Assembly (NCBI GenBank): GCA_038093515.1
Contig: JBBPSI010000194.1
Span: forward strand, 1-45,263
DNA: 45,263 bases
DNA from: Butyriboletus loyo
Taxonomy: Eukaryota; Basidiomycota; Agaricomycetes; Boletales; Boletaceae
Reading direction: 5' to 3'
The notes beneath the pieces were generated by a model. It did not search any database and was not told where the DNA came from. It was given only the letters and a program-made list of their open reading frames with translations. Below are positions 8,976-40,901 of the stretch, piece by piece (the stretch's first letter is position 1; each line of letters begins with the position of its first letter). Made by a program: the position numbers and the translations under genes.

Positions 8976-8977
8976 AA

Positions 8978-8987
8978 AGAACTAGAT
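8978..8987 (+). promoter_or_regulatory. Primer-binding site of Y (self-priming type)
   Basis: AGAACTAGAT lies two bases after the LTR and is the exact complement of ATCTAGTTCT at 8814-8823, which sits 32 nt downstream of the TATA box. The arrangement is identical in Z (18365-18374) and X (minus, 40890-40899). Confidence 0.78.
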
Positions 8988-14570: not shown

Positions 14571-16360
14571 GCTCAAAGGGACGCCGTCAATTCCTTGTTT
14601 CCTGGAAAGGGTACTCTGCAGCGGAGAATACCTGGGAGCCGAATGGGAACTTGGTCCATGCGCAGGCCCTGCTCAAGGCTTATAAACTGCACCACCCCAA
14701 GGATTTTCCCTCCCCATCTTCGCAGTAAACTCGAAAATGGCCATTCCTCCTGCTGAAAACAATGCCTCTGACAACAATGAGAACATCCCTCTTCCACCTC
14801 AGCCTCCCGTCCGTTCCTCCCATCTCCCAGTGTCTTCCTGCCGCGTCCTCTACACCGCCGTCCTAGAAAACCCTGTCGCCACCTATGCCTTGGAGCAGCA
14901 TATGGACTTCACTGGGGACTATGTCCTCCGTACCCTTGCTTCTCTCTACCGCTCCTACACCCTCGCCCGTACTGTCCACACCCGTCTTTGCCCCGACAAC
15001 CAGCCACCCGTCTACGCCGCCGCCCTCGAGTCTTCCCTGATGGAAGCTTGAGGGTACACGTTGGACATCCTCCATGCTGAAGGGTTTGGCTACGTTGTAG
15101 ACCAACTTTTGCCGGGTATTCTGGCCCCCGTCCTCAGACCCATCCTCATTGCGCTTGCTCCTAGGGAGCGGCAATTCTATCTTCATTCCGCCGACCACAT
15201 CAGCTATCTCTGCCCCATGGCTTGCAGCCCCAATCCAGTGCCTCGTCCTCCCCTGGCAAGATCTCCTTCGCATATACCTGTTCCAGCACCACCCACTCAA
15301 GAGTCACCTGCAACCACACTGGTAGCAGACTCGTTGCATGAGATACCAGAGAGTCCTTGGAGTCCTTTCGGACTGATGTTGATGAGCCCCAGGTTGCTCG
15401 TCAACACTCCCCTCTCCCACCTCGTACGGTGCGCCGCCAACCTCGCCAGGCCCTCCTCCAGGCCAGAGCTATCCCCAGGTCAGTCACCCTCACCGCTGCA
15501 GGATGAAGAATTGCCAACCGAGCTGTCTGCTCCGTCACCCCCCAACCATTCACTCGACGAGGAACCCCAGCCATCCAGCTCATTCCTCATGTCAACTCCC
15601 CCGTCGCCGCAGCTGGTGGTTCTAATGACTCTTTGTATGGACCCCCGCCTCCCTACCTCCCTGGTCGGGGCACTCGTGATTCCCCTATCGTCCTGGATGA
15701 CAGATCCCCGGCTACCAGCCCACGCCCTACTCAACCTTGCCTCGTCCGGCTGCAGCTCTGTTTCGAGTGCGGCACCATTGGCCACTTCCGCAGAGAATGC
15801 CCAAACTACACCTGCCCATTTTGCCACCAGGTCGTCCCTGGTCATATACAGGAGTTTTGTCCAGAGCGTGTCTGCGGGTTATGCGGCACCATTGGCCATA
15901 TCGTCGCCAACTGCACATTCCGGGACAACATATGGGCAGACTTCTCTGCCGACGACGCTTACAACAATGACTTCAACGAGGGAGCATCTCAATGAAGGGA
16001 GTTTTCAAGTCGTGGAGTCGGAGTCTCCACCATGGGAAGGGGGTAATGTTACGGTAGTGGTATACTTTTTCCATCCATTACCACTAGGACTACTTCATTC
16101 GCCTAGCCTTTTGCTAGTGCCCTTTGAGCGGTATGAACCGCTCTAGCTTAGTCACCATTTCCCATGCACAGACGCGCTTTCTTTCATACTCCAGAACATT
16201 CTAGAGTACTCCTTCCTCGTTTGTACTTTCCTTCTTGCGACTCGATTAGGAACATGGTCTGTGCGCAGACCCCAGTAGTATAAAGACTCGGTCTTTACAC
16301 CCATGTACTCTATCTAGTTCTATGCAGTTCACTGCTAGCAATTAGCTTCACTCCAGACTC
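14571..16360 (+). repeat. 1790-bp inverted duplication of the X 3' region (plus-strand arm)
   Basis: Nearly identical to the reverse complement of 34363-36152, with equal length and no indel that I could see. Both arms carry the same disabling changes in ORF3 (TGA at 15049-15051 and a one-base loss near 15340). In the 314-bp LTR part I count about 11 differences, all transitions. Upstream of 14571 the two elements are clearly more diverged. Confidence 0.85.
14737..15995 (+). pseudogene. ORF3 of X, plus-strand copy
   Basis: Starts at ATG 14737, eight bases after the pol stop. MAIPPAENNA... leads into the conserved MDFTGDYVLRTLASLYRSYT domain, then TGA at 15049-15051 (Arg in A1) and GYTLDILHAEGFGYVVDQLLPG. 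About 290 bases later one base is missing relative to A1 (near 15340), so the C-terminus with CFECGTIGHFRREC, the C-x2-C-x6-H-x4-C module and CGLCGTIGHIVANC is read in another frame (15633-15995). Its position after pol and before the polypurine tract is where some retroelements carry an env-like gene, but I see no signal peptide or membrane segment. Confidence 0.78.
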
Positions 16361-16473
16361 TTAGTGTGAGCACTAAGACATAGTCTGAGACTTCTCCCAG
16401 AATCGTCTCCAGAGTCCTGAGGCTACTCTTGAGTGCCTCCTCACTGTTCTAGTTGTTAGCGCCCAGCGTAACA
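16047..16473 (+). repeat. LTR-A, original 3' LTR of X
   Basis: 427 bp, followed by CTCCC (16474-16478). Variants (CCATCCATTACC, GAGCGGTATGAACCGC) pair it with the LTR at 40902-41328 on the minus strand, whose outer flank is GGGAG (41329-41333), the reverse complement of CTCCC. The two LTRs of one insertion now lie about 24 kb apart and face each other. Confidence 0.92.
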
Positions 16474-17136
16474 CTCCCTAGTCGCCTAGTGGACGTTATC
16501 CACTTCCCCAGTCGTTCCGCAAGTCTTAGTGTCGCTACACTGAGATAGCCCCTGTCTTCTCGCCCCATCGGGCCGGACCCACACATGTGATTAGATTACG
16601 ACGCGTCCTTACCTTCACATCAAGACCTGTATCCAAGGGCTCTGCCATTCGCACACCCTTTGCCCTGTGGGCCGCACCTTGTGAACATCGTCACTTCATC
16701 TTCTGATCTTCCTATTCATTGACGATGTCGCCACCTTACCCAGAGCTTCGCTCCCTCATTACCAGCACTTTGCTGCTCCATATTTCGTGGTTATGACTCG
16801 ATGCGACTCATAACCCTTCACCCTCGCTGCCACGCACAGCTCGGTCTGTGCGCCATATCTATTTAGTATATATACCAGCGTACTTAGGATAGTACGGCTT
16901 CTCTAGCTAATTCTACGCATCTACCAAGTGCCTAGCAATCTAGCTTATACCCCATCTGCCAATAGAGCCAATAAGCTTCAGCTTGATCTCGTCTGGTCGC
17001 CACCATACAACATCTAGCTGACACTTGCTCTGCAGAAGCCCGATAGCGTCGTCTACGCAAGTCAGCCATCTTCCCGATTAGGCTCGAGCCCCTATTCAAG
17101 CGCTCGTTGCTAGTTGTTTCACACTCCAGCATAACA
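16474..17136 (+). repeat. LTR-C, right part of a copy split by X and by the inversion
   Basis: Matches the reverse complement of the solo LTR-C from its middle to its end (...GCATAACA). It has the promoter block GGTCTGTGCGC followed by TATATATA near 16870. The missing first part is at 41329-41430. Flanks agree: GATTA at 17137-17141 here and TAATC at 41431-41435 there are the two copies of one 5-bp target duplication. Confidence 0.85.
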
Positions 17137-17249
17137 GATTATGGCCTTCTGCTATGGGTAGGTTTAGGAGGTTTGCCTTTAGTGGTTCTTGAGTTATTAG
17201 CTTAACAATCAAAATGTTGCCAACATTGCAATGGTTTTGTTGCCCACTG
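17137..17249 (-). repeat. Displaced left terminus of Tc-3
   Basis: Ends CCCACTG followed by TA (17250-17251) and matches 42740-42852, the outer half of the right end of Tc-3, almost base for base. In Tc-3 the LTR-C inserted at TAATC within this terminal repeat. The inversion then carried the outer piece about 24 kb away from the body at 41431. Confidence 0.83.
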
Positions 17250-17251
17250 TA

Positions 17252-17480
17252 CATTGCATCTGCCTCCAACCCAGCAGACCCCATCTCTCGAGGAATCCTC
17301 CTGCCATGCTCTTTGCTCCTTCTGCACATTCCCATTCCTCCCTCCCTCATCCCTTTTATCATTGATGTTGTCGACTTCCTCACAAATGGCATCACCACCC
17401 ATGCCTATGTCCAACCCAGTATCCCTACACCCTCTAGCAGCATTGCTCTCAATCAGTGTCGCAATGCTGAAGCCTCTCTT
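17252..17480 (+). pseudogene. YR retroelement: C-terminal RNase H region
   Basis: Encodes YIASASNPADPISRGI, a motif typical of the end of the RNase H domain in YR retroelements, then a hydrophobic, proline-rich stretch (LLLHIPIPPSLIPFI). The frame is interrupted by the solo LTR-A (17481-17907), continues in 17908-17937, is interrupted by Z, and resumes at 25442 (DILIREALSQTPNG). The Tyr codon uses the TA of the Tc-3 target duplication. Reverse transcriptase sequence upstream is not in the window; it should lie beyond the right edge on the minus strand. Family assignment is by motif memory, not by a search. Confidence 0.62.
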
Positions 17481-17907
17481 TGTTACGCTGGGCGCTAACA
17501 ACTAGAACAGCGAGGAGGCACTCTGGAGTGGCCTCAAGACTCGTTGAAGTGTTTCTGAGCTGGGTCTCAGACTATGTCTTAGTGCGCACACTAAGAGTCT
17601 GGAGTGAAACTAATTGCTAGCAGGTTACTGCGTAGAACTAGATAGTGTACATGGTGTAAAGACTGGGTCGTTATACTACAAGGGTCTGTGCACAGACCAT
17701 GTTCCTAATTGAGTCGCGAGAAGGAAACTACAAATGAGGAAGGAATATTCCAGAAGATTCTGGAGTATGAAAGAAAATGTGTCCATGTGCGAGAAATGAT
17801 GACTAAGCTAAAGCGGCTCCTACCGCTCAAAGGGCACTAGCAAAAGGCTAGGTGAGTGAAGTAGTCCGAGTGGTAGAGGAAGGAAAAAGTATACCACTAC
17901 CGTAACA
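17481..17907 (-). repeat. Solo LTR-A with CTCTT target duplication
   Basis: 427 bp, minus orientation (TGTTACGCTGG...CCGTAACA on the plus strand), flanked by CTCTT at 17476-17480 and 17908-17912. It sits inside the YR element coding sequence. Its variants (CCTCTACCACTCGGAC in sense) are closest to the LTRs of Y. Confidence 0.93.
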
Positions 17908-17937
17908 CTCTTCACACAGAGGAGCAAGTCTGGCACA

Positions 17938-18362
17938 TGTTACGGTAGTGGTATACTTTTTCTCTCCATTACCACTTGGACTACTATGTTCACCTAGCCT
18001 TTTGCTAGTTCCCTTTGAACAGTATGACTATTCAGATTAGTCATCATTTCTCACGCACAGATGCTGTTTCTTTCATACTCAAGAAGCTTCTAGAGTATTC
18101 CATCCTCATTTGTCTTTTGACTCTCATGACCCGATTAGGGACATGGTCTGTGCGCAGACCCCAGTAGTATATAAACCCAGTCTTTACACCAATGTAACTT
18201 ATCTAGTTCTACACAGTCTTCTGCTAGCAATTAGTTCTCTTCCAGACTCTTAGTGTGTGCACTAAGACATAGTCTGAGACCCATCCGAGAATCGTCTCAA
18301 GAGTCCTGTGGCTACTCCAGAGTGCCGCCTCAGAGTTCTCGTTGTTAGTGCCCAGCGTAACA
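17938..18362 (+). repeat. LTR-A, 5' LTR of Z
   Basis: 425 bp, TGTTACGG...GCGTAACA. The TATA box reads TATATAAA, with GGTCTGTGCGCAGACC upstream and ATCTAGTTCT downstream. The primer-binding site AGAACTAGAT follows at 18365-18374. Confidence 0.95.
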
Positions 18363-18496
18363 AAAGAACTAGATCTTCACCTCGCTTCTGCTTCCCAGCA
18401 GTAAAGACGCCCTCCCCTCTCACCCACCATTACCACCCCACGATCAAGATGTGTCAGTCGCTCTTTCCGAGTTCCATCCCCCAAACCGGAACCCAT

Positions 18497-18945
18497 TTTC
18501 GGAATTGGTAAAGTCCGAGCAGGTGCACTGAGGGCAACGAAGGATGCAAGGGTAAACCTATCAGTGGAAAGACTCACTGATAATACGAGAGTGAGAGTAT
18601 CGCAAACAGAGTATAAGGAGCAAGGCTCAACTTAGAGATATCGCAGTAGTGAAGATAGAACTGAAAGATCTAGAGAAAAGTGACAAGCCATAAGGGCTGT
18701 CTTATATACAGTACATGAGTGTTTGTACTTATGTTCTGTATAGTACCTTTATAAGGTATAGTATGAAATACATGACGATATGATAGAGATAAGAGATAAG
18801 ACTAAGCATATCGTCCAATAGCATAATAAGAGCTATTTGTAATGTGATAAGCGTGACTAGGTCTAGACAATGATGTCATATAGACCAGTCTAGAAACATA
18901 GTGGCTGTAAGTGAAATACAGAAATAGAACACTACCGTTTCAACA
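18497..18945 (-). repeat. Solo LTR of a Ty1/Copia element (family D) in the leader of Z
   Basis: 449 bp, sense strand minus (TGTTGAAAC...CCGAAA), flanked by CCCAT at 18492-18496 and 18946-18950. The uninterrupted site is visible in Y near 9105 (CCGGAACCCATCATCG), which confirms the borders. It matches 29912-30394, where the same LTR follows a Copia RNase H coding end. The 3' end lacks the usual CA. Confidence 0.9.
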
Positions 18946-19180
18946 CCCATCGTCGTTGACAACCTGTCACCACCCCACTCTCCTGACCAACCAGACCCTC
19001 TGCCCCAGCCTGACCCCGAACCCTCTTACCAACCTGAGGACCAGAATCTAGGGCAAGGATCCACCTGACAATGACAACTACAGTAGCGACTACCTTGATA
19101 GAACCCCTCATGTATCTCACTCCCCATCCCCACCATACTATCCACCCGCATCCTTCTCTACCGACGATGATGACAACGAC

Positions 19181-20178
19181 ATGTCCAGTGAAAGAAAAAA
19201 CATTGTCCCCAAGGACTTCTCTGGGTTGAACGAGGATGCCTCCTGATGGCTCCTCACCATGCGAACCTACTTTGACATGAACCCCACTGCATTCCCCGAT
19301 GACAAGTCTAAGATCGGAGCCCTCCTCACCAAGATGAGCAAAGGAAAAGGAAAAATGTTCTCAGAAGGCTGGATGGCCCTTAGCCTGGACAGGAACCCCA
19401 CTGAACACCAGAAAGAATTCAAGATGGTCTGCGAGGACTTCCAAAGAGTCTTCCATCCCTTTGACGTAGGAGAGAGTGCCTGCATTGATCTGGGAAACCT
19501 CACCCAGAACAAAAACAATCGAAAGGACAGGTACGACACCTATGTCATGGAGTTCCAGCTCCTCACAGCTAAGTCTGGAATCATTGATGAGAAGGCACTC
19601 ATCGAGTGGTTTATTTGCAGTCTCGACCCCCGCCTTGCTGAAGCAGTCCTCTTGTGTGAAAAAGTTCCCACCACCCTTGCCGGTTGGGCCGACAAAACAT
19701 CTGCCTTCCATGCTCAACATAAAAGAATTGACGACCTCCACACAGGAAAGCGCTATATCCCCACCTTCTCTTCCTCCTCCAAGCCCTCATCTAGCCGAAG
19801 GGACCCCAATGCCATGGATGTTGATGCCATCCAACTTACTCCCATACAACGTGCGGAGTACATGAAGCAGAACAAGTGCTTCATATGCCACCAAGTCGGC
19901 TGTCGCTCAACCAATCATCCACGCCCTCCACGCAACAGACAGAACTCCCGCGGACCGCCTCCTCATCCCCCTCGCAACCCCCAATGTGCATGCGCCGCTG
20001 TCGTCACACCCCCTGAACCTAAGCCCTCCCCACTCATCGACTACTTGTCTGAGTTAAAGGTCGAGGCACCCAGCAGGACGATGTCCTAAACATACTCAAA
20101 GCTTGCTTCAACAATGAAGAAGAAAAGTTGCCCGTCGCAACAAGCAAAGTGGCCAAAGCTTGGCCAAAGGATTTTTAG
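19181..20178 (+). pseudogene. Gag of Z
   Basis: Same layout as Gag of Y. ATG at 19181, then a TGA at 19244-19246 in place of an Arg codon (ASRWLL in Y). From 19259 the frame is open through FHPFDVGESA, MDVDAIQLTP and the zinc motif CFICHQVGCRSTNH. A one-base loss near 20058 shifts the last 40 codons; the original frame ends at TAG 20176-20178 at the same T-run as in Y. Confidence 0.87.
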
Positions 20179-23100
20179 AAGAGAGGGAAGTTTCGACGTC
20201 TTCACCTCTCCATGTAATCACCCCTGTAGTTTTATCAAACCCCCATGCACAATCTATTCGAGTTCCTGTGTCAATCTTCGCACATGAAGGGGGTCAAATT
20301 GTCAACACATTCGCCCTGGTGGACAGTGGCGCAAGCGGATGCTTCATAGACCGGGATCTAGTGAAGCGAAAGAGATTGCTGATGGAACGGCTACCCAAGC
20401 CACTCTGTGCGCAGAATGTGGACAGGTCAAATAACCAAGGAGGAGTCATCCGACACAAAGTCACCATCTCCATCAGGATTGGAGAAACCGAGGAGGAACA
20501 GAGCTTCCTAGTCCTCAACATAGGAAAAGAAAATATGATCCTGGGTTTACCATGGTTGAGAGAAGCCAACCCAGTAATAGATTGGGCCACCAGCCATATC
20601 GATCTCCCAGATCAGATGAAGAAACCCCAACATGACTCACCTCAGGCAATCGCTCAGCATTACCTGGTATGGTACCTGGACTTGGACCCAGACTCCAAGA
20701 TCACCAAGCTCTGGAAGAAGCAAGTGGACGCTTCAGCAAGGGACGCATACCCTATCAGAAAAGCAACCATCGCGACCGAGATCGCCTCACAAGCCATCAA
20801 AGAGAAGGCAGTACTCCCGACCCTGTTCAAATCCTTCGCAGACGTTTTTGACAAGAAGAACACTGAGGAACTACCCCTGTCCAGATCCTTCGACCACGCC
20901 ATAGACCTTGACAAAGACTTCGTTCCAAAGGTCGCTAAAGCCTACCCTCTGAACCCGAAAGAGTCTGAAGTGTGCAAAGCCTTCGTCGAAGAACATCTCA
21001 AGTCCAGGAAGATTACCCCTTCCAAATCCCCTCAGGTAGCCCCATTCTTCTTTGTGTCCAAGAAGGATGGCTCACTATGCCCCTGTCGGGACTACTGGTA
21101 CCTGAACTCCCATACCATCAAAAATGCCTACCCTCTACCTCTTATCTCCGACCTCATCGACCGTCTCAAAGGGTCGAAGGTTTTCACCAAGATGGATATC
21201 CACTGGGGATATAACAATGTCCTGATCAAGCCAAACAACCGCTGGAAGGCAGCGTTCATCACTCCTCAAGGGTTGTTCGAACCCACCGTGATGTTCTTTG
21301 GACTCTGCAATTCCCCTGCTACATTCCAGGCATTGATGGACCACATCTTTGGCAACCTTATGGCCGAGGGATGGTTGATCATCTACATGGACGACCTCCT
21401 GATTCACTCTGCCACCACTCAGGAGCATGAGGCGCGAACCATCCGAGTACTGGAAGGATTACAGGAACATAAATTATTCCTTAAGCTGGAAAAGTGTTCA
21501 TTCGACGCCGAGGAAGTGGAGTACCTCGGAATGATGGTCTGGGAAGGACAGGTCAAGATGGACCCCACCAAGTTGAAGGCAATTCGCGAGTGGAACCCCC
21601 CTACTTTGGTAAAGGCAGTCAGGTTCTTCATCGGATTCTGCAATTTCTACTGCAGGTTCATACAGGACTTCTCCCACATTGTGAAGCCCCTGCATGACTT
21701 GACAAAGAAGAGCACCCCCTGGGCTTGGACCCCCGCTTGCGAACAAGCATTCTAAGCAATCAAACAGTCCTTCCTACGCCAACCCGTACTCTCCATGCCT
21801 GACGTCACGAAGCCATTTGCCATTATGACGGATGCTTCCCTCACCGCTACTGGAGCTGTGCTCATGCAGAAGGATGTCAACAGCGACCTACATCCCTGTG
21901 CCTATCTATCTAAAATGCTCTCCCCCACCGAGCATAACTACGATATCTATGATTGTGAGTTGCTCGCAGTCATCCATGCATTGGAAGAATGGCAACATTA
22001 TCTTCGGGGCATGGGTCACCAGGTAGAAATTCTCACCGACCACAAGAATCTCACCTACTTCCATCAACCCAACAAGTTGTCTCGCTGGCAAGCGTGCTGG
22101 CTCATGTTCCTGCAGGACTTCGACCTGCATTTCCACCACATCCCAGGCACCCAGATGGGTCCTGCAGATGCCCTGTCCCATTGTGACGATGTCAATACCT
22201 CCACCAACAATCAGGAAGTCACACTCCTCCCCGAAGACTTGTTCGCCAGGAAAATCGACCTGGCCCATGTGGACAAGATCACCGCCTCCTCCCCCACCGA
22301 TCCCATGATCAAACGATGCATGCAGGCCTTATACAAAGACTCTCCCCTCTTCCCCAAGATGAACGCAGGGGATTGGGACTTTGATGGAAAATAGTTGTAC
22401 TTCCGGAAGAAACACTATATTCTGGAAGCCGCCCATGTCAACCTCATTCGCTCCCTGCATGAAAGCCCTGCTGGAGGTCATGGTGTGATATTCCACACCC
22501 AAAACCTGGTGCAGAGAGATTACTGGTGGCCTGGCATGGCTAACCTTGTCTGTCAATTCATCTTGGGATGTGCTGTTTGCCAGGCGCACAAGGTAAACAC
22601 CCACCCCACCATTCCTCCCCTCACACCCTTGGCTAGTGTGGCCTCTTGCCTATTTGAACAGGTCTCTGTCGACCTCATCACCGGTCTTCCTTTCTCCCTG
22701 GGTTATGATTCAGTCATGGTTGTGGTAGACCATGGGCTTATGAAGGGGGTAATTTATTCCTCTTGCAACAAGGACATTGATGTGGCAGGAGTTGCTAAAC
22801 TATTTTTCAAAACAGTCTTCCTTTGATTTGGCCTCCATTCCTGCTGTATCTCTGACCGTGGCCCTCAATTCGCCTCCACCTTTGCCAGAGAACTTGCAAG
22901 GCTTCTTGGCTATGACCTCGCCCTCTCCTCCATGTACCACCCACAAACTGACGGAGAAACCAAATGGGTCAACCAAGAACTGGAGACATACTTAAGGATC
23001 TTCTGTGATGGTCACCCAGAACAATGGGCCGACCTACTCCCCAAGGCCGAGTTCTCTCATAACTCGATGACACACTCCTCAACCAATGTGACTCCTTTCT

Positions 23101-23720
23101 CTTTGATGGTCAGGTATGAACTGAGATCTTATCCTCTGATTGGAAAGATGTTCCTCCCCACCCTCAAGTCCAGACTTTCGGAACTCACAGGAGCCTGAAT
23201 GGAAGCCCTGGAAGCCCACGAAAAGGCACGACGGTTGATGAAGGAACAGATCTCATCCAAGTTCCATCTGTGGAAGACAGGAGATAAGGTTTGGCTCAAG
23301 GGATGTAACCTTCGACTCAGGTACCCATCAAAGAAGCTTGCCCCGAGACGGGAAGGACTGTTCGAGATTGCACAGGTTGTCTGCCCTGTGGCATACAGAC
23401 TCTGATTGCTGCCAACCTGGAAGATCCACGATGTCTTCCATGCGTCACTTCTGACTCCCTATTGTGAAACTGCGGAGCATGGTCCAAACTTTACCAATCC
23501 CCCTCCAGAAGAAATAGATGGAGATGAAGAGTACAAAATCGATAAGATCCTATCGCACTGTGGATCAAAAGGACACCGTCCATTCCTTGTGTCCTGGAAA
23601 GGATACTCCATGGCTAAGAACACCTGGGAATCAAACGGGAACCTGGTCCATGTGCAGGCCTTGCTCAAGGCTTATAAGCTGTGCCACCCCAGAGAGTTTC
23701 CTTCCCCATCTTCACAGTAA
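20160..23720 (+). pseudogene. Pol of Z (several stop codons)
   Basis: Same length and order as the 1186-codon Pol of X. 20160-21755: protease DSGASG and reverse transcriptase IYMDDLL, then a stop. 21795-22394: RNase H with MTDAS and YDCELLAVIHALEEW, where Asp-Arg has become Asp-Cys. 22395-22826 and 22932-23198: integrase, with the HHCC finger and TKWVNQ in place of TERVNQ, so the third catalytic Glu is Lys. 23406-23720: chromodomain with FLVSWKGYS. Five or so internal stops. Compared with X, many Arg codons have become His, Cys, Trp, Gln or stop, as expected from CpG transitions. Confidence 0.93.
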
Positions 23721-23727
23721 AACAAAG

Positions 23728-24965
23728 ATGGCTATCCCTCCCGCTGAAAACAATGCCCCACTCCTGGCTCAACTTCCTGTTCGCTCTTCGCATCTCCCAG
23801 TCTCCTCTTGCCACGTCCTTTACACTGCTGTCATTGAAAACCCCATCGCTACATATGCCTTGGAGCAACGTATGGATTTCACTGGGGACTATGTCCTCCG
23901 CACCCTCACCAGTCTTTACCGGTCCTACACCCTCGCCCGCACCATCCACACCCGCCTCTGCCCAGACAACCAACCCCCTGTATACGCCACTGCCCTGGAA
24001 ACCTCCCTGATGGAGGCTAGAGGATATACCCTCGACATCCTTCATGCTGAAGGCTTCGGGTACATTGTGGATCAGCTCCTCCCAGGCATCTTGGCCCCTG
24101 TCCTCCGCCCCATCCTGGTTGCTCTTGCTCCTAGGGAGAGAGTGTTTTATTTTCAGTCTAACGACCGCATCAGCTTCCTCCACCCCACTGCTTGCAGCCC
24201 CAACCCCCCTCCTCATCCTGCCACAGAAGGATCTCCTCCACCTCTACCTGTTCCAGCACCATCCACTAGAGAGTCTCCTGCAACCACATTGGTAGCAGAC
24301 TCGTCCCGTGAGACCACTGGCAAATCCCTGGAGTCCTTTCGGACCAATGTCGATGAGCCCCAGGTCGCTCGTCGACACTCCCCTCTACCACCTAGAACTG
24401 TGCATCGCCAACCTCGCCAGGCGCTTCTCCAGGTTGGAGCTATCCCCGGGTTGGTCACCCTCACCACCGCAGGAAGGAGGATCGCCAATAGGGCCATATG
24501 GTCCGTTACCCCTCAACTGCCCATGTGCAGAATGACCCCTGCCTCCACTTCATCCCTTGGGTCTCCTCCCCCCTCGCTGCAACTGCTGGTTCTACCAGCT
24601 CCTCGTATGCACCTCCACTGCCCTACCTCACCACCCATGGCACTTGTGATGCCCCCATCATTTTCGATGACAGATCCCCTGTCGGCAGCCCACACCCTGC
24701 TCGACCTTGCCTCGTCCACCCACAACTTTGCTTTGAGTGTGGCACCGTCAGCCACTTTCGTAGGGAGTGCCCCAACTACACTTGCCCCTTCTGTCACTGC
24801 ATTGCCCCAGGTCATATTCAGGAGTTTTGCCCTGAACGAGTATGCGGCCTCTGCGGCACCATTGGCCATATTGTCGCCAATTGCACATTCCAGGACGACA
24901 TCTGGGCAGATTTCAATGCCAACGATGCTTACGACTACGATGTCAACAAGGGGGAGTCTCAATGA
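23728..24965 (+). pseudogene. ORF3 of Z
   Basis: ATG at 23728, seven bases after the pol stop. The N-terminal domain is intact (MAIPPAENNA, MDFTGDYVLRTLTSLYRS, GYTLDILHAEGFGYIVDQLLPG, LAPRER). The frame is open through the linker to about 24520, where one frameshift moves the C-terminus into the frame of 24498-24965. That part carries CFECGTVSHFRREC, the C-x2-C-x6-H-x4-C module and CGLCGTIGHIVANC. Apart from the frameshift there is no stop, so this copy also shows that the domain and the knuckles form one protein of about 410 residues. Confidence 0.78.
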
Positions 24966-25016
24966 GGGGACCTTGCAAGTAGTGGAGTCAGAGTTTCCAC
25001 CATGGGAAGGGGGTAA

Positions 25017-25441
25017 TGTTATGGTAGTGGTATACTTTTTCTCTCCATTACCACTTGGACTACTATGGTCACCTAGCCTTTTGCTAGTTCCCTTTGAACA
25101 GTACGACTATTCAGATTAGTCATCATTTCTCACGCACAGACACTGTTTCTTTCATACTCAAGAAGCTTCTAGAGTATTCCATCCTCATTTGTCTTTTGAC
25201 TCTCGCGACCCGATTGGGGACATGGTCTGTGCACAGACCCCAGTAGTATATAAACCCAGCCTTTACACCAATGTAACTTATCTAGTTCTATGCAGTCTTC
25301 TGCTAGCAATTAGTTCTCTTCCAGACTCTTAGTGTGTGCACTAAGACATAGTCTGAGACCCATCCAAGAATCATCTCAAGAGTCCTGCGGCTACTCCTGA
25401 GTGCTGCCTCAGAGTTCTTGTTGTTAGCACCAAGCGTAACA
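25017..25441 (+). repeat. LTR-A, 3' LTR of Z
   Basis: 425 bp after the polypurine tract GGGAAGGGGGTAA. Followed by GCACA. Aligns end to end with 17938-18362. Confidence 0.95.
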
Positions 25442-26697
25442 GCACAATGATATCCTCATCCGAGAAGCCCTCTCACAAACTCCTAATGGGACCTAGGTTC
25501 AACTCCCCACTCTCAGACACAGCCTCCTCCATCACTGTATTTTCCTCAGCCTTGCATCCCCACCCCTACAGCCCCAACCTTACTCCAAAGCCCTCATGCC
25601 TTTGCCCGCACTGCTGCACCAGAGACTGTCTATGACTGTGGTCACCTTTACACACTTTCCACAGAGCAAACTCACAACCAACAGAATCTGTTGGGCTGCA
25701 CTCCAACTCAATTTCAGATGGCCAGTTTGAACAGATCTTGGATGTCATCTGTGCCTCATGGACGGAGAAGACAAAGGAAACATATGGTTCTGGCCTACTG
25801 GTTTTCCATGTCTTCTGCAATCTACATAATATCCCAGAAGATGACTGCTGCCCAGTGTCACCCTCCCTCATTTCATCCTTCATAGCAAGTTGCACAGGTG
25901 CTTACTCAGGCTTGGCTCTTCACAATTTCACTACAGATCTCCATGCTTGGCACCTCCTCCATGGCCAATCCTGGCACCCAAACAACAATGAGTTGCACTC
26001 ATTGCTAGAGAGTGCATCACATCTAGCTCCAGCCTCCTCGAAATGCCCCAAGCATGTTCCTTTCAAATGGGACCTTCTGATCAAATTCCTATCCTATCTT
26101 AACACAGACAGTCATCGTGATGCAGCAATCTTCGCCTGCATGCTAGTCACTTTCTACTCTGTTTCCAGACTGGGCGAGTTCACAGTACCACCTATCTCAA
26201 AGTTCAATCCTTCCGAACACATCACACAGGCCAACTACTCAAAGGTCCTCAACACCAACAACCTCATCATCCTTTCATTCCGCATTCCCACCACTAAATG
26301 TGCATGTTCCAGGGAAACCACACAATGTGCATGGTTAGAGCATCCCACAGATCCAGTAGGCTGGCTCGACAACCATCTGTGCATCAACAACCCAGGTCCA
26401 CTAGACCACCTATTCACCTGGAAACACCTAAAATCTGGTTTGTGACCACTCACAAAAACAGAAGTTACCAAGCATATCCAACAAATTGTAATGCAACTCT
26501 CTCTCCCAAATGTCAAGGGTCACAGTCTTCACATCGGGGGAACGCTACATTACCTTTTTCTGGGTACACCTTTCGACATCATCAAGACCATGGGGAGATG
26601 GTCAGGAGACTCTTTCACACAATATCTTCGAAAACATGCCCTCATTTTATCCCCTTACCTGGTTGAATGTGTGGACATCATAGAGCAGCTCACATAA
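25442..26697 (+). pseudogene. Tyrosine recombinase of the YR retroelement, copy 1
   Basis: Integrase of the phage-lambda type used by DIRS-like elements to insert a circular cDNA. A linker with PKPSCLCPHC is followed (25738-26445) by a core-binding domain (ICASWTEKTKETYGSGLLVFHVF, SLISSFIASCTG) and the start of the catalytic domain, SVSRLGEFTVPP with the first Arg. After one stop and frame change (near 26445), 26491-26697 gives GHSLHIGGTLHYL, GRWSGDSFTQYLRKHA and the C-terminus. The H-x-x-R box reads H-S-L-H, so the second catalytic Arg is lost (CAC, consistent with a former CGC); a Tyr follows in QYLRKH. Probably DIRS- or Ngaro-like; a Crypton is less likely because RNase H sequence precedes it. 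Confidence 0.72.
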
Positions 26698-26759
26698 CAT
26701 GCAATGCCCCCCATTCATTGACAGACAGTAAGTCCCCGCTCCTTCCTGGATGGGGTCGA

Positions 26760-28140
26760 GCTTCACTCCACGCATCACAGTCTCCTTGCCGATTGGAAAC
26801 ACAGCTCACTTGTTTGGGAGCAGATAGTGCTTCAGGCTGGAAAAGCCCTACGGGCTTTCACCCTTCATTCTATAGTCTCCTCTCCACAGTATTGTACATC
26901 TGTACATAATTCTTCTGTCAACCATCACTCCTCTCTCTCTCTAGCTCCCACTAAGTGTTTGATATTCATGGACATGTACTCAAGTGACAAGGGGAAGAGC
27001 TCTTCCAAACAGCACAAATCTACCTATCCAGCTGATTTGACCCCCCTCCCATCTGCACTTTGCCTGCACTGCCCTGTAAAGGACAGGCTTTCCTTGTGGG
27101 TACCTGTCTGCTGTCATGCCCTCTTACTCAATTTGCCTCTAGTTGAGTTTTCTCACATCCAAGACATTATGATCCACACATGGGCAACTAGTACACATGA
27201 ATCATATGGGTCAGGTCTCCTCATCTTTCATGTCTGGTGTGATGCTAGGGCTGTTCCTGAGTCTCAACATGCTCCTGCCCCCTCAGACCTCATCTCAGCC
27301 TTCATTGCATATCTTGCAGGCCTGTGCTCACAGAAAACTATCTCCAATTATATCTCAGGTGTTCAGGCTTGGCACATTTTCCATGGTCAATCTTGGTCCC
27401 TCAATGATCTCAAAATTGACACACTGCTCAAGGCAGTGGATTGTCTTGCACCAGCAACCTTGCATTGGAAGAAGTGTTCTTCATATATCATTGGCTTCAT
27501 CACATCTGTGCATGGAGAACTTGACCTGAATGTTCCTCTTGATGCCTCCATGTTCAGTTGTCTCACCACTGGTTTCTACTCCATTGCACACCTAGGCGAG
27601 CTCACTGTTCCCACTCTCCAAGCCTTCGATCCAGTGTGACATGTCAAACACTCTGATATTCAGATTGAGCATACTCACAATGGACTGAAACAGACGGTAT
27701 TTGCTATCCCCCAGACTAAGACAAGTCCCATGGGTGGAGACCTTTTGTTTGCTGACCAACATGGACTTTCTGACCCACACTCTGCCTTGGACAACCACCT
27801 TTGTGTCAATAACCTTGCTTCTTCATCTCTGCTTTTCACCTACTGTTCCAAACCCCCCAGAGTGTACCACCCTCTGATGAAGCCAAAGTTTATTGCACAC
27901 ATTGTGGCTGCAGCCAAAGCGGCTGGTCTGGAGCCTCTCCAAGGTCACAGTATTTGTATTGGTGGTACACTTGAGTATCTGCTGCACAACACTCCATTGA
28001 GGCAGTAAAAACCATGGGTCACTGGAGAAGTGATACATTTCAAGGTTACCTACACAAGCATGCTCAGATTGTGGCTCTGTACATGCAGGCCACACTGGTC
28101 CTTCACCAAGAGTTTGTCCATTACACCATGCCAGAGGTCG
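26760..28140 (+). pseudogene. Tyrosine recombinase of the YR retroelement, copy 2
   Basis: A second, diverged recombinase directly after the first. 26827-27639: linker with TPLPSALCLHCPVKDRLSLW (parallel to TPKPSCLCPHC in copy 1), core-binding domain (HTWATSTHESYGSGLLIFHVW, LISAFIAYLAG, ISGVQAWHIFHGQSW), and SIAHLGELTVPT, where the first catalytic Arg is His. After a stop, 27730-28008 gives LDNHLCVNN and GHSICIGGTLEYLL, where the second catalytic Arg is Cys. The tail is frameshifted. Either two elements in tandem, the second lacking its reverse transcriptase, or a duplicated domain. Both catalytic Arg losses fit CpG transitions. Confidence 0.7.
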
Positions 28141-28174
28141 AGCACATATGCCAGGGTGAGCAGTAGCCTCCTCC

Positions 28175-28678
28175 TGTTATGAGACAACAGAGTTATCAAG
28201 TCACACAGGGTTCCGCGACTGTCGCAGTGCTACACAAGTACTGGCGAGATGTAATGAGGATAGCTTAAGTCTTAATCTCTCAACTGTTGCCAGCGAATAA
28301 GACAAGTGGTTAAAGCTAGGGAATCCTAGTCTAACTACGAGCCTTTATATATTGTACAGAGATGCGCACAGACCATGCTGTGCGTGAGATGAACTACTAT
28401 ACATGGCTAGACTAAAGAAGAGAAGCGCAACGGTGATTAACCACACGAGGCGCAGGGATTATAAAGAAGAGAAGTAAACGGAGATTAAATACATGTGTCG
28501 TGACGTTATAGAGTCTAGGCCTGGGCTAGACCATGACATCATATGCTTAGTCAGCAAGAGATCACATGTAAGTTCCCACGATCACGTGCGCTATGTCACG
28601 TGACCTTTGAAGTTGAAAATGACTAAGTCCGAAGTGAAAGTGTACAAAGTGTACAAATAAAATGTTATGATTATAACA
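28175..28678 (-). repeat. Solo LTR-B with CCTCC target duplication
   Basis: 504 bp, sense strand minus (TGTTATAATC...CTCATAACA), flanked by CCTCC at 28170-28174 and 28679-28683. Homologous to the 5' LTR of B1 over its whole length, including the TATA box and AGCTTTAACCA. Much richer in CpG than the B1 LTR, so probably younger or less decayed. Confidence 0.92.
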
Positions 28679-28744
28679 CCTCCTACTTTTCTGAGAATCC
28701 AAGTTTCACTCAATGCATCATCGTTCTCCTACCTTTTTGGGGGA

Positions 28745-28897
28745 TTTGCAGCTCATCTCAACTCCACAGGTTTGTAGGTCATCGGGAAGCACTGCATGCT
28801 TTTGCCCATCCACTTCACCTGTATCTCATTTATCAACTAGGAAATTCTGTCAGTTGTTACTTCCATAGCTACTCACATCTACAGTGAACCTCAAAGA
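28745..28897 (+). repeat. Direct repeat 1 downstream of the recombinases
   Basis: About 153 bp, starting TTTGCAGCTCATCT and ending CTCAAAGA, repeated at 29185-29338 in the same orientation with a handful of transitions. The two copies are separated by 287 bp (28898-29184) without an obvious gene. This spacing, just past a YR gene, fits the B1-A2-B2 ends of split-direct-repeat elements; inference only. Confidence 0.85.
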
Positions 28898-29184
28898 TTG
28901 CTAGTCTATCATGAAGCAAGGCACAAGTGAAGGGTTAGAGTTAAGTCTTTGAGTGAGTGGCAAGATGCAGCATTGCTTCTTGCCATCATTTCATCACCAC
29001 CACCACTGTACTTTACTACAGTGTCCAGGACATCTTGACTTTCTGTCTCACTCATTGAGTCTTTTCTTCCACCCACCACTCCCTGGGCTGCATCTCATCA
29101 CTGATTCAACACAGCACCTCACAGCATCTCTTTGTGGTAAGCTACTTCCTGTGTGAAGTCTGCTGCAAGGCTGGCCACCCACCC

Positions 29185-29338
29185 TTTGCAGCTCATCTTG
29201 ACTCCACAGGTTCATAGGTCATTGGGAAGCACTGCATGCTTTCACCCATCCACTTCACTCATATCTCATTTATCCACTAGCAAATTCTGTCAGTTTGTTA
29301 CTTCCATAGCTACTTGCATCTACAGTGAACCTCAAAGA
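29185..29338 (+). repeat. Direct repeat 2 downstream of the recombinases
   Basis: Second copy of 28745-28897. Its end coincides with the start of unrelated gag-like sequence (29339), so it may be the physical end of the YR element. YR elements make no target duplication, and none is seen. Confidence 0.85.
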
Positions 29339-29911
29339 GCCAATAATTGTGCAAAAGGCACAGGACTTCTGCTGCACTGTCAGAGCATATTCCAGTTTAG
29401 GAGCTTGAGGGGCTGGAGGTTGGTGTTGTATACTGGTTGGTAACTGGTTTTGACTTTGGTGTGTTGACGAACTGTGATTGGTAGTATTAGGTAATGTGGT
29501 GGCTGTAGACAGAATTGCAGATAATCAAAGTGCTGATCTTGTCAATAGAAACATGGCTGTACTGATAGTATCAGCAATAGGATATGGATCATCAGGGTGG
29601 AGGTCTGACTGGACTATAGATAGCCAGTGTCAGATTCTTTTCTCCACATCCTGCAGAAATCTGGAAAGGAAAAGTGAATTGTGCTCAACCTCTGAAAGCT
29701 TCTTAGTAGCAATCAGGAGGGAGGCGATCTTTATAAACTTCTGTCTATGCTTTCCAAGATCCTCTTGGCTACACATAGCACAAGCCTTGGAATCCTATAC
29801 TAGATATTGAAGATCAGCTCAACAATACCAATCACCCCCTTCGCATCCAGGATATAGATCTTTAACAGCAGTGATGAATAACTCCAAATCTGCTCCCAAG
29901 GCTGAAGGTAA
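29339..29911 (-). pseudogene. Gag-like fragment of an unidentified retroelement
   Basis: Minus-strand reading gives LGADLELFITAVKDLYPG, then (after stops) EDLGKHRQKFIKIASLLIATKKLSEVE, a segment ending HPDDPYPIAD, a Gln/Pro-rich stretch, and QQKSCAFCTIIG, which looks like the first half of a zinc knuckle cut off by the YR element border at 29338. The layout is Gag-like but I cannot name the family. The Copia LTR at 29912 interrupts its upstream side. Confidence 0.5.
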
Positions 29912-30394
29912 TTTCGGAATTGGTAAAGTCTGAGCAGGTGCACTGAGGGCAATGAAGAATGCAAGCATAAGCCTATCAGTGGAAAGACTCACTGATAATA
30001 CAAGAGAGAGTATCACAAACAGGGGTACTTGAAGAGTATAAGGAACAAGGCTCAACTTAGAGATATCACAGTAGTGGTGAAAGAACTGAAAGATCTAAAG
30101 AAAAGTGACAAGCCATAAGGGCTGTCTTATATACAATACAGGAGTGTTTATACTTGTGTACTGTATAGTACCTATATAAGGTAAGGTAAGAATCACATGA
30201 CAATATGTTAGAGATAAGAGATAAGACTAAGTATATCATAAGTAGAGCTATATGTAATGTGACAAGTGTGACTGAGTCTAGACTATGATGTCATAGTGAT
30301 GTCATATGGTTCTAGACCATGATGTCAGAAAGCCCAGTCTGGAAATGTAGTGGCTGTAAGTGAAATACAGAAATAGAACACTACTGTTTCAACA
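29912..30394 (-). repeat. Ty1/Copia LTR (family D), 3' LTR of a truncated element
   Basis: 483 bp, TGTTGAAACAG...CCGAAA on the minus strand, homologous to 18497-18945. In sense direction it is preceded by a purine-rich tract (AAGGAGGAG) and by the end of a Copia RNase H gene, which fits a 3' LTR. Confidence 0.85.
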
Positions 30395-30715
30395 CTCCTC
30401 CTTGCTTTAGCATTACTTCTTTATGGAAGAGAAATGTAAAAGAGAGAGCATGGACCGAACTTCTTCAAACCTCTGCCATGTCAGATTCTTCATAAAGATA
30501 TCTGCAGCTTATTGTTGAATAGGAGTATAAAAGAGAGTAATCTCCTTATCCTCAACACATTCCCGAATATAATGAAATGGAATTGCAATGTGCTTGCTAC
30601 GTCCTTCAATGGCAGGATTAGAAGCTAGAAATATAGCCCCTTGATTATCAACTAGAAGGGGTAAAGGACCAAGTCTGTATCCCAACTTGAAGAACAAGGA
30701 GCACACCCAAGTCAG
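30395..30715 (-). pseudogene. Copia RNase H, C-terminal fragment
   Basis: 30509-30706 encodes LFFKLGYRLGPLPLLVDNQGAIFLA, SNPAIEGRSKHIAIPFHYIRE and ITLFYTPIQQ, the classic end of Ty1/Copia RNase H (DNQGAI, RSKHI). Reverse transcriptase and everything upstream are missing. The reading breaks off near 30713-30716 against B1 integrase sequence, so a deletion or rearrangement joins the two. Confidence 0.87.
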
Positions 30716-32875
30716 GCTTGATCCAAATGACTGGCAATAGGAGAATCATGGCATATGTTAAGTAATTGTATTCTAAGTGCCTCAGACACAAAGACTTTTT
30801 TCTTTTCATTAATAAATACAGATTGATCTGTATTGTAATAGAATCCTGGTATTTCATTTTCATTTTCATATTCTTCTTGCAAGGTATTGTAAAAGGAAGA
30901 GGAAAGGGTGACTTTATTAATGAAAAGATTCTACAGTAATATTTGTATCATGGTCTGCTCAATGTGAAAGTGCATCTGCTCTGCCATTGGTTGATCCTGG
31001 CTTGTACACAGATCCTGGCTTGTACACAAAATGATAATTAAATTCTTGAAGAAGCATGTGCCAGTGGGCTTGTTGTCCAGACAGTGTTTGTGGCTTCTTC
31101 CAATACTCAAGGTTCTTGTGATCCATCCAGATCTCAAAACCTTCTCTCCCAATTAGATAGTGGTGCCATTCTTCTAAGGTGTGAATAACAGCCAATAGTT
31201 CTTTATCATAAATCAGATAGTTCCATTTGGCAGCATCAAATGAGTGCAAAAGGAATGCACAGGATCACCATAGATCATCCAATCCTTTTATGGAAAGAAC
31301 AGCCCCAACTGCTATATCTGAGATGTCTGTTTCTGCCCACATTTCCTTGTCTTGGTCTGGATAGGCTAAAAGTGGTGCTGTTGTAAACTTTTTCTTTAGC
31401 ATAATGCTGATTGTTCTTCTTTACCCCATTTGAAAGGAGTATCCATCTTCATCAAATTATTGAGAGGATGAGCTATCTCCAAGAAACCCTCAATAAACCT
31501 TCTATAGTAGTTACATAATCCAAGGAATACTTGAACTTGTTTAAGGCATGTAGGAGCTGGCCAATCACAGATGGCATCCATCTTCTTGGTCTGCATCTCA
31601 ACACTGTCCTTGGAAACTACCATACTGAGAAAGTCTATTTTATCAGAAGAGAAAACACATTTTTTCTGGTTTTATGAATAAATCATTGTCTCTAAGGTGT
31701 TGGAGGACCTATTTTATGATATCCTCGTGTTCCACCTTAGTTCTCCCTTTGGTAAATTAATGTCATTGATGTAAATAATGACAACAGCATATATATTGTT
31801 AAATATATCATTCATCATATTCTGAAAAGTAGGAGGGAAATTAGTAAGCCCAAAGTACATTATGAAAGTGGCTTTCCATTCATCTCCTTCTTTGATATGA
31901 ATATTGTTAAAACCCCATCAGAGATCTAACATAGTAAAGATATCAGCGCCTTTAAGCCTATTGATCAACTGTGGTATAAGGGGTAATGGATAACCATTTT
32001 TAATGGTTTCATCATTTAGATAACAATAGTCCATAACTAAATGCTTATCACCAGTATTTTTAGGAATAAAGAACATAGGAACTGTCTGAGGAGACTTTGA
32101 CAGTCTTATGTAACCCTTTTTGAGTTCTTTATCGACAAAGCTTCTAATCTGGTCCTGTTCCTCATTGGACATTGGAATAACCTGTCCCTTTTTTGGAATG
32201 AAATTGGGCTTAAGATCAATTGTGTGATCCCAAGGCTTGTGCTCAGGCATATGTGCTGCTTTGTCCTCAGAGAAAACATCTAGATAATTGTGATAAGCCT
32301 TGAGCACTTTTTCAGCCACACCAGGCTCAATGGAGCAACAACTGGTAATGCTGGACAAAGAAATAGTGTCTGCAATAACTTTACAATATGGGGAACAATG
32401 ATTGAAAGAAATCTTTTTGAAATGACAGTCAATATCCACATTGTGGTGCACAAACCAATTGTAACCAATAATCATTTGATGGAAACCCAAGAGGGAAATG
32501 TAAGCCTCAATGGATTTGTAATGTCCATCAATTTCCATAAAAAGGGAAGCTTTGTGTGTAATATGTCCTATAACTCCTTTAGAGCTGTCTGCATTAATAA
32601 CTTCCATAGAAGATGGTAAAGGAATTAGATCAATTTTGTGAGTTTCACAATATTTTTCGTCAATGAGGGTATTGACTGCTCCCATATCCAGCAAAGCTTT
32701 AAGTGAACAAGTTCACCAAGTAGTGTTTGACTGGTATGTAATTGTAACCAATGGTGAGTAATCACCACTGAACATTAAAGAACTTTTTACTGAGGGTTTA
32801 TAAATAGAAGTGCTTGATTGAGTGTTCATTTGTCTTAGAAGAGACTTAAGCATGCTATTTATTGATCCCAGCACT
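30716..32875 (-). pseudogene. Gypsy B1 pol, right half: protease, reverse transcriptase, RNase H, start of integrase
   Basis: Continues B1 from 8549. In sense order: LGSINSMLKSLLRQM, protease LLDMGAVNTLIDEKY (the usual DSGA is DMGA), reverse transcriptase with PQTVPMFFIPK, NGYPLPLIPQLINRLKGADIFTMLDL, and YIND at the YxDD box, so the first catalytic Asp is Asn. RNase H follows (YDKELLAVIHTLEEWHHYL, MDHKNLEYW), then the first half of the integrase zinc finger (LLNICHDSPIASH). It stops there against Copia sequence, so the rest of integrase and the 3' LTR are gone. Several stops and frame changes. With 4342-8549 it makes one element. Confidence 0.84.
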
Positions 32876-33301
32876 TGTTACACTGGGCGCTAACAATCAG
32901 AACAGCGAGGAGGCACTCTGGAGTGGCCTCAAGACTCTGAAGGCGGTTCTGGGCGAAGTCTCAGACTATGTCTTAGTGCGCACACTAAGAGTCTGGAAGT
33001 GAACTAATTGCTAGCAGGTATCTGCGTAGAACTAGATAGTGTACATGGTGTAAAGACTGGGTCTTTATACTACTGGAGTCTGCGCACAGACCATGTTCCT
33101 AATCGAGTCGCGAGAAGGAAACTACAAATGAGGAAGGAATATTCCAGAAGATTCCGGAGTATGAAGGAAAGTGCGTCCGTGCGCGAGAAGTGATGACTAA
33201 GCTAGAGCGGCTCCTACCGCTCAAAGGGCACTAGCAAAAGGCTAGGCAAGTGAAGTAGTCCGAGTGGTAGAGGAAGGAAAAAGTATACCACTACCATAAC
33301 A
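32876..33301 (-). repeat. LTR-A, 3' LTR of Y
   Basis: 426 bp, the same length as the 5' LTR of Y (8550-8975) and sharing its private variants. Preceded in sense by a polypurine tract variant (GGGAGGGGGGTAA). Confidence 0.93.
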
Positions 33302-33352
33302 TTACCCCCCTCCCATGGTGGAGACACCGACTCCACTACTTGCAAGGTCCCC

Positions 33353-34362
33353 TCACTGAGACTCTCCCTCGTTGACATTGTAGTCATAAGCATCATTGGC
33401 ATTGAAGTCTGCCCAGACATCGTCCCGGAATGTGCAGTTGGCGATGATATGGCCAATGGCACCGCAGAGGCCGCATACTCGTTCAGGGCAAAACTCCTGA
33501 ATATGACCCGGGGCGATGCGGTGGCAGAAGGGGCAAGTGTAGTTGGGGCACTCCCTATGAAAGTGGCCGACGGTGCCGCACTCGAAGCAAAGTTGCAGGC
33601 GGACGAGGCGAGGTTGAGTAGGGTGAGGGCTGTTGTCAGGGGATCTGTCGTTGAGGATGATGGGGGCATCACGAGTCCTGTGATTGGCAAGGTAGGGGGG
33701 CAGGGCTCCATACGAGGAGTTGGAAGAACCAACCATTGCTGCGACGGGGGTGGTGACTCGAGGAATGAGCTGGATGGTGGGGTTCTGCGATGGGTGGATG
33801 GTTGGGGGGTGACGGAATGAAAGGCCCTATTGGCGATCCTTCTTCCTGCGGCGGTGAGGGTGACCGATCCCAGGACAGATCCAACCTGGAGAAGCGTCTG
33901 GCGAGGTTGGCGATGCACAGTTCTAGGCGGTAGAGGGGAGTGTTGATGAGCGACCTGGGGCTCGTCGACGTCAGTCCGAAAGGACTCTAACGACTCGCCA
34001 GTGGTCTCACGGGACGAGTCTGCTACCAGAGTGGTCGCAGGTGAATCTCTTGCGGATGGCGCAGGAATAGGTAGTGGCGGAGGAGATCCTTCCACAGTAG
34101 GACAAGGAGGAGGATTGGGACTGCGAGTGGTGGGGCGAAGAAACCCGATGTGGTCATTGGACTGAAAATAAAACACTCTCTCCCTGGGAGCGAGAGTGAC
34201 GAGGATGGGACGGAGTACGGGCGCAAGAATGCCCAGGAGGAGCTGGTCCACTACATACCCGAATCCCTCGGCATGAAGGATGTCCAGGGTATAACCCCTA
34301 GCCTCCATCAAAGAGGTCTCAAGGGCAGTGGCATACACAGGCGGTTGGTTGTCGGGGCACAG
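33353..34362 (-). pseudogene. ORF3 of Y, C-terminal part
   Basis: Starts within the N-terminal domain (YATALETSLMEARGYTLDIL), continues through FYFQSNDHIGFLRPT and ESFRTDVDEPQVA, then changes frame near 33770. The C-terminus (33353-33736) has CFECGTVGHFHREC, the C-x2-C-x6-H-x4-C module and CGLCGAIGHIIANC. The initial residues were lost at the rearrangement junction. Confidence 0.78.
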
Positions 34363-34676: not shown

Positions 34677-34727
34677 TTACCCCCTTCCCATGGTGGAGAC
34701 TCCGACTCCACGACTTGAAAACTCCCT

Positions 34728-35986: not shown

Positions 35987-35994
35987 TTTCGAGT

Positions 35995-40899: not shown

Positions 40900-40901
40900 T
40901 T

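What the first reader, a model, noticed from the sequence alone, without database searches (positions are those of the whole stretch)
14571..34362. An old inversion of about 18-20 kb, readable from five split elements and three target-site duplications
Seen: (1) Gypsy B1 is cut at Y; its left side ends at 8549 (plus) and its right side resumes in frame at 32870 (minus), with AGCGC/AGTGC at the two sides of Y. (2) The LTR pair of Y is 8550-8975 (plus) and 32876-33301 (minus), by shared private variants. (3) The LTR pair of X is 40902-41328 (minus) and 16047-16473 (plus), flanked by GGGAG and CTCCC, which are reverse complements. (4) One LTR-C copy is split into 41329-41430 and 16474-17136, with TAATC/GATTA outside. 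(5) The left tip of Tc-3 is at 17137-17249 but its body starts at 41431. One inversion between inverted family-A elements explains all five.
Basis: partly seen in the sequence, partly recalled or inferred. Interest (0 to 1): 0.9.

Follow-up and report, generated by a model that had tools for sequence, protein, structure and literature searches.

The report
Inversion between two fungal retrotransposons
In what is probably a mushroom-type fungal genome, a 16-kb piece of DNA appears to have been flipped between two opposed copies of the same jumping element; the scar shows one end joined by matching sequence and the other simply glued, with 1.8 kb copied on the way.

Summary
The inversion is real in the sequence as assembled. 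In 9 of 11 other B1 copies the left flank abuts the inverted segment's end. In 10 of 11 Tc copies the distant tip abuts the body with exactly the 5-bp target overlap. An intact LTR-C copy in the window and 2 of 4 fetched loci show the two LTR-C pieces adjacent. Target-site duplications fit only crosswise.

One correction: it is not a clean reciprocal crossover. The left junction (14570|14571) is homologous and in register. The right junction (34362|34363) is not: the 3' LTR of X, cut at 314 of 427, is fused to Y about 1.4 kb out of register. The 1,790 bp between these points in X are present twice, as inverted copies 98.6% alike, and about 415 bp of Y are missing. Best mechanism: a break in Y, invasion of the inverted copy X, about 1.8 kb of copying, then a half-crossover whose broken donor end was end-joined. 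The duplicate's lower divergence (1.4%) than the LTR pairs (3.0-3.3%) places the inversion after both insertions. A known kind of event; assembly error is unlikely but not excluded.

The parts
8550..14570 (+). 5' part of element Y (Ty3/Gypsy chromovirus family A): 5' LTR 8550-8975, then internal part with an LTR-C copy inserted at 12265-13084
14571..16360 (+). copy of X following Y in register; inverted duplicate of 34363-36152 (25 differences in 1,790 bp)
16361..16473 (+). last 113 bp of the 3' LTR of X; with 16047-16360 it makes a full LTR; followed by X's TSD CTCCC 16474-16478
16474..17136 (+). larger part of the LTR-C copy that X had entered; its partner is 41329-41430; TSD GATTA at 17137-17141
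17137..17252 (+). tip of a Tc1-like element whose body starts at 41431; 100% identical to its other tip 42740-42855
16474..32875 (.). inverted segment between the outer ends of the two elements (16,402 bp)
30713..32875 (-). B1 part that in 9 of 11 other genomic copies abuts the sequence ending at 8543-8549; Y target site 32871-32875
32876..34362 (-). 3' end of Y (3' LTR 32876-33301 plus 1,061 bp internal); starts at the position equivalent to 14986
34362..34363 (.). non-homologous junction: Y joined to the 3' LTR of X, cut at 314 of 427; no microhomology apparent
34363..41328 (-). body of X with truncated 3' LTR 34363-34676 and 5' LTR 40902-41328; TSD GGGAG 41329-41333
41329..41430 (+). smaller part of the split LTR-C copy; TSD TAATC 41431-41435
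41431..42855 (+). body of the split Tc1-like element; frame 41818-42597 (-) with a Tc3-type transposase match

Best explanation
Two copies of a Ty3/Gypsy chromovirus, Y (+) inside a B1 element and X (-) inside an LTR-C copy that itself sat in a Tc1-like element, lay in opposite orientation about 16 kb apart. Shown: the segment between them is now inverted relative to five broken elements; the left junction is homologous and in register at 14570|14571; the right junction 34362|34363 is out of register; 1,790 bp of X exist twice and about 415 bp of Y are absent. Inferred: a double-strand break in Y lost some sequence; its left end invaded X by homology and copied about 1.8 kb towards X's 3' LTR; the intermediate was resolved as a half-crossover, linking Y's left end to X's tail and the intervening DNA; the broken body of X was then end-joined to the right end of Y. 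The net result is an inversion with an inverted duplication at its ends.
For: Crosswise TSDs and LTR pairs. Paralogous empty sites: B1 abuts in 9 of 11 copies with 2 to 12 unaligned bases, in two of them (L010, L011) with the target site single and its length exact; Tc tip and body abut in 10 of 11 copies with a 5-bp overlap equal to the TSD; LTR-C pieces adjacent in 2 of the 4 fetched loci with LTR-C matches and in the window's own 12265-13084. Divergence from X drops from 224/1486 left of 14570 to 25/1790 right of it, in one ungapped alignment; the next best match of 14571-16360 among 40 scored candidates is 89%. Right junction out of register by 1,375 bp with no visible microhomology. Timing fits: duplicate 1.4%, LTR pairs 3.0% and 3.3%.
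Against: No reads and no second allele: no near-identical second copy of 25442-32875, 4000-8549 or 41329-45263 appeared among the scored matches (40 scored of 1081, 941 and 681 candidates), so assembly error cannot be excluded. The LTR part of the duplicate is more diverged than its internal part (11/314 against 14/1476, p = 0.002), which a single copying event does not predict; 9 of the 11 lie in LTR positions 84-193, a stretch picked after seeing the data and also over-represented in three other, partly overlapping LTR comparisons but not in a fourth. The LTR tree does not recover Y5 and Y3 as sisters. The two internal pieces of Y do not share their nearest relatives (92% to C199/C64/C268 against 87% to C46/C389), but the two halves of the unbroken X do not either, so the family is mosaic and the test is blind. 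Half-crossover itself is inferred from the end product only.
Confidence: 0.78

Rival explanations
1. Same inversion, but the duplication comes from staggered breaks in X (on one chromatid, or one break on each sister chromatid), filled in and joined to the ends of a broken Y.
For: Inverted duplications at inversion ends are the usual footprint of this model (PMC7584159 and PMC12368964, passages). The right junction looks end-joined.
Against: The left junction is exactly in register between the two homologous elements over a 3,276-bp ungapped alignment; blind end joining would give that only by rare chance. A version in which the left ends anneal by homology is hard to tell from the half-crossover.
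Confidence: 0.25
2. Assembly error: the assembler flipped the segment between two similar repeats, and no inversion exists.
For: Inverted 8-kb repeats are classic misassembly sites (recalled); the window is one whole contig (45,263 bp) of a 420-contig draft whose first bases lie inside a repeat; no second copy to compare.
Against: The two copies of the 1,790-bp stretch differ at 25 sites, and the right junction is not at a shared sequence; a repeat-induced flip should join homologous positions on both sides.
Confidence: 0.1
3. A simple reciprocal crossover made the inversion and a later event duplicated the X segment and removed part of Y.
For: The left junction is a normal homologous one. The uneven divergence within the duplicate would allow more than one event.
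Against: Needs a second, independent rearrangement ending precisely at the first breakpoint.
Confidence: 0.08
4. No inversion: gene conversion between two ordinary elements made the 3' part of the left one look like X.
For: The sharp identity step at 14570|14571 alone would fit a conversion tract.
Against: Conversion cannot swap TSDs or split B1, LTR-C and the Tc element.
Confidence: 0.01

Closest known systems
Ectopic (non-allelic) homologous recombination between inverted transposable elements
   Same: Two chimeric same-family elements at the ends and an inverted segment between (scheme in the Figure 1 legend of PMC12368964, passages seen); exchanged flanks and TSDs follow from it
   Different: Only one of the two junctions is homologous here, and sequence was duplicated and lost
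Inversions by staggered breaks and end joining with inverted duplications (Drosophila O7; Ranz et al. 2007 as cited there)
   Same: Inverted duplication at the ends, one end-joined junction (PMC7584159, passages)
   Different: One junction is in exact homologous register inside related elements
Break-induced replication ending in half-crossover, with a broken donor (yeast)
   Same: One-ended invasion, some copying, fusion of recipient with donor, broken donor left to be repaired (PMC3937135, passages); half-crossover or BIR also proposed for Ty1-mediated rearrangements (PMC3102749, passages)
   Different: In the passages seen those are yeast assays, the first between two copies of a chromosome; here the inferred donor is an inverted repeat about 16 kb away and the donor end was closed by end joining
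Ty3/Gypsy chromoviruses (Tf2-like pol with chromodomain)
   Same: X frame 35995-39555 carries protease, RT, RNase H, integrase zinc-binding, Tf2-1-like SH3 and chromodomain matches
   Different: Nothing unusual seen in the element itself

Membership tests
Transposon-mediated ectopic-recombination inversion | Same-family elements in opposite orientation at both ends | tested here: met
   8550-16473 (+) and 32876-41328 (-)
Transposon-mediated ectopic-recombination inversion | Flanking TSDs exchanged between the two elements | tested here: met
   contiguous reading mismatched; crosswise 5/5 (X) and 4/5 (Y); nested LTR-C TSD 5/5
Transposon-mediated ectopic-recombination inversion | Pre-inversion adjacency of split flanking sequences | tested here: met
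   9 of 11 B1 copies, 10 of 11 Tc copies, the window's own LTR-C copy and 2 of 4 fetched loci with LTR-C matches; all paralogous, not orthologous
Transposon-mediated ectopic-recombination inversion | Both junctions in homologous register, no net gain or loss | tested here: not met
   right junction out of register by 1,375 bp; 1,790 bp gained, about 415 bp lost
Staggered-break end-joining inversion | Inverted duplication at the two ends | tested here: met
   14571-16360 and 34363-36152
Staggered-break end-joining inversion | Both junctions without homology | tested here: not met
   right junction yes, left junction homologous and in register
Half-crossover repair | Homologous invasion junction, copied donor tract continuous with the donor's distal part, broken donor end repaired separately | tested here: met
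   met as far as an end product can show; uneven divergence inside the tract is not explained; intermediates not observable
Half-crossover repair | Dependence on strand-invasion and resolution enzymes | not testable with these tools
   needs genetics
Ty3/Gypsy chromovirus | Protease, RT, RNase H, integrase and chromodomain in pol; TG..CA LTRs; 5-bp TSD | tested here: met
   integrase seen by its zinc-binding and C-terminal matches only

The most novel reading that the evidence does not exclude
A naturally kept footprint, readable to the base, of a half-crossover between inverted repeats on one chromosome whose broken donor was closed by end joining: an inversion with one homologous and one non-homologous end, showing that retrotransposon-mediated inversions in fungi can be made by one-ended invasion instead of reciprocal crossover.
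Probability: 0.45. Interest if true: 0.45.

Novelty: new member of a known kind. Interest (0 to 1): 0.33.

Why it matters
Transposon-mediated inversions are usually sorted into 'homologous' or 'end-joined'. Here nested insertions with TSDs and many paralogous copies let each step be placed, and the event is both: one end each. Such hybrid scars may be misfiled as simple crossovers where only the flanking elements are annotated. The duplicate orders the inversion after the insertions without an outgroup genome.

Tried and rejected
Gene conversion without inversion: rejected by TSDs and split host elements. Simple reciprocal crossover: disfavoured by the out-of-register right junction. Allelic contig with the other orientation: none seen for 25442-32875, 4000-8549 or 41329-45263 among 40 scored candidates each; the list was cut off; 17253-25441 was not searched as a whole. 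Nearest-relative congruence of Y's two internal pieces: failed, but equally for the unbroken X, so uninformative. LTR tree of 21 rows: Y5 and Y3 fall in one fork of five with C394, C140 and C86 (86/86), but Y3 sits with C394 (91/87), not directly with Y5; 16047 groups with the truncated LTR 34363 (88/84); X5 is unresolved; too few sites to prove pairs. Donor LTR for the extra differences in the duplicate's LTR: of the 41 listed matches none but the query itself is closer than the window's own 16087-16247 at 94%. Papers: searches (listings). Passages of PMC9674265 (Marasmius oreades: one inversion among protoclone variants, at hAT copies) and PMC3026039 (Anopheles Ty3/gypsy) gave no close parallel. 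Ranz et al. 2007 was not held and is cited only through other papers. I make no claim that the half-crossover reading is absent from print.
Full report
Setting. The window is a whole contig, C194 (45,263 bp), of a 30.3-Mb genome in 420 contigs. The one protein searched for relatives, an open frame at 26827-27639, found 12 proteins, the best two from Paxillus (61% and 58% over 75% of the query), with others named from Mycena, Agaricus and Collybiopsis and some unnamed. The genome is therefore probably that of a mushroom-forming basidiomycete; the organism itself was not identified. The window is largely nested transposable elements.

Anatomy. Two full-length family-A elements face each other: 8550-16473 (+) and 32876-41328 (-). 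The intact 1,186-aa frame of the second (35995-39555) has protease, reverse transcriptase, RNase H, integrase zinc-binding, Tf2-1-like SH3 and chromodomain matches: a Ty3/Gypsy chromovirus. Read as contiguous units, neither has a target-site duplication: AGCGC/CTCCC and GCACT/GGGAG. Read crosswise they do: AGCGC/AGTGC for Y and GGGAG/GGGAG for X; the LTR-C copy around X has TAATC/TAATC. Random 5-mer pairs of the window match exactly at 0.0011 and with at most one mismatch at 0.017. Three other complete insertions in the window have perfect TSDs of their own, as do 4 of the 5 LTRs that I read as solo among 12 fetched, the fifth having one mismatch.

Empty sites. The strongest test does not use LTR similarity. 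In 11 other B1 copies (L010-L020) I looked for the window's left flank and the end of the inverted segment. In 9 they abut with 2 to 12 unaligned bases between them and in the opposite relative orientation expected; in L010 and L011 the target site is single and its length exact, with two substitutions. L016 keeps the order with a gap of 385 bp and L015 has no adjoining left match. In 10 of 11 copies of the Tc1-like element (L034-L044) the tip at 17137-17252 adjoins the body that starts at 41431, with exactly the 5 bp of the TSD overlapping; L040 is disrupted. Four of these loci also hold LTR-C matches: the two LTR-C pieces adjoin in L036 and L043, keep the order with a diverged middle in L034, and L042 shows one piece only. 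The window's own intact copy 12265-13084 also shows them adjacent. These copies are paralogous, not orthologous, so they show the original structure of the elements, not of this locus in a relative.

LTR pairs. The LTR at 8550 has its best match at 32876 (97%, next 95%) among 40 scored of 798 candidates. For 16047 the best is a solo LTR on C77 (721 bits), then 40902 (712 bits). C77 has its own TSD with one mismatch. So the Y pair is supported by similarity, the X pair mainly by TSD and nested context. In the LTR tree the pairs are not cleanly recovered.

The junctions. In one ungapped alignment of 3,276 bp the left element differs from X at 224 of 1,486 sites up to 14570 and at 25 of 1,790 from 14571 to 16360. 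The next best match of the latter stretch among 40 scored candidates is 89%. At 34362|34363 the 3' LTR of X stops at position 314 of 427 and Y starts at the position equivalent to 14986, 1,375 bp out of register, without apparent microhomology; the Y bases just before this point are lost, so microhomology was judged against related sequence. Consequently 1,790 bp of X are present twice in inverted orientation, and the part of Y equivalent to 14571-14985 is missing.

Timing. The duplicate differs at 25 of 1,790 sites, all transitions, 18 of them at CpG. LTR pairs differ at 14/426 (Y) and 13/427 (X). The internal part of the duplicate (14/1476) is less diverged than the Y LTR pair (p = 0.002). 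The inversion is thus younger than both insertions. Against a single clean event, the LTR part of the duplicate (11/314) is more diverged than its internal part (p = 0.002). Nine of these 11 lie in LTR positions 84-193, a stretch that I picked after seeing the data; three other comparisons, two of which share sequences with this one, are also enriched there (Y pair 7 of 14, X5/16047 7 of 13, X5/34363 11 of 14), while the LTRs of the 17938-25441 element are not (5 of 21). A mutable stretch is my preferred reading; conversion from another LTR found no donor. CpG decay by DNA methylation is recalled knowledge, not tested. No absolute age is given.

Mechanism. Homologous left end, continuous copied tract, non-homologous right end and loss at the broken element fit a one-ended break repair: invasion of X by the left end of Y, about 1.8 kb of synthesis, half-crossover, end joining of the donor's broken body to the right end of Y. 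Half-crossovers that leave a broken donor are described in yeast (PMC3937135, passages), and half-crossover or BIR has been proposed for Ty1-mediated rearrangements (PMC3102749, passages). Staggered breaks are a standard account of inverted duplications at inversion ends, and repair footprints are a discussed alternative (PMC7584159, passages). The exact register at the left favours invasion over blind joining, but a break pair on sister chromatids with annealing at the left would look much the same.

Limits. No reads and no alternative allele seen (scored candidates only; 17253-25441 not searched as a whole). Two differing copies of the duplicate and a junction without shared sequence argue against a repeat-induced assembly flip, but do not exclude a chimera. 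The nearest-relative test across the junction was uninformative because the family is mosaic.

Verdict. Observation confirmed, interpretation largely right but incomplete; a well-resolved member of a known kind of rearrangement.

Noticed in passing
25442-28172: The longest stretch of the searched part of the inverted segment (25442-32875) without any other listed match in the genome (others: 28680-28897, 29068-29911); the frame 26827-27639 resembles hypothetical proteins of Paxillus, Mycena and Agaricus, one of which (P0007) bears a cut-off name beginning 'Tyr r'.
   Followed up: partly
1123-2093: The 3' end of another family-A element appears twice in tandem (LTRs 1182-1608 and 1668-2092 with about 60 bp of internal sequence between; repeat 79% alike).
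   Followed up: no
6792-8365: Tc1-like element inside B1 with 217-bp inverted ends (94%); among 40 scored candidates many near-complete copies at 92-96% identity, suggesting a fairly recent burst.
   Followed up: no
LTR positions 84-193 of family A: Differences between LTRs of Y and X cluster in this stretch in four partly overlapping comparisons but not in the 17938-25441 element; mutable stretch or small conversions.
   Followed up: partly
14571-16360, 32989-34362: The 3' third of family A seems to occur in two subtypes about 80% alike, combined with the same kind of 5' part in different contigs, as if the family were mosaic.
   Followed up: partly
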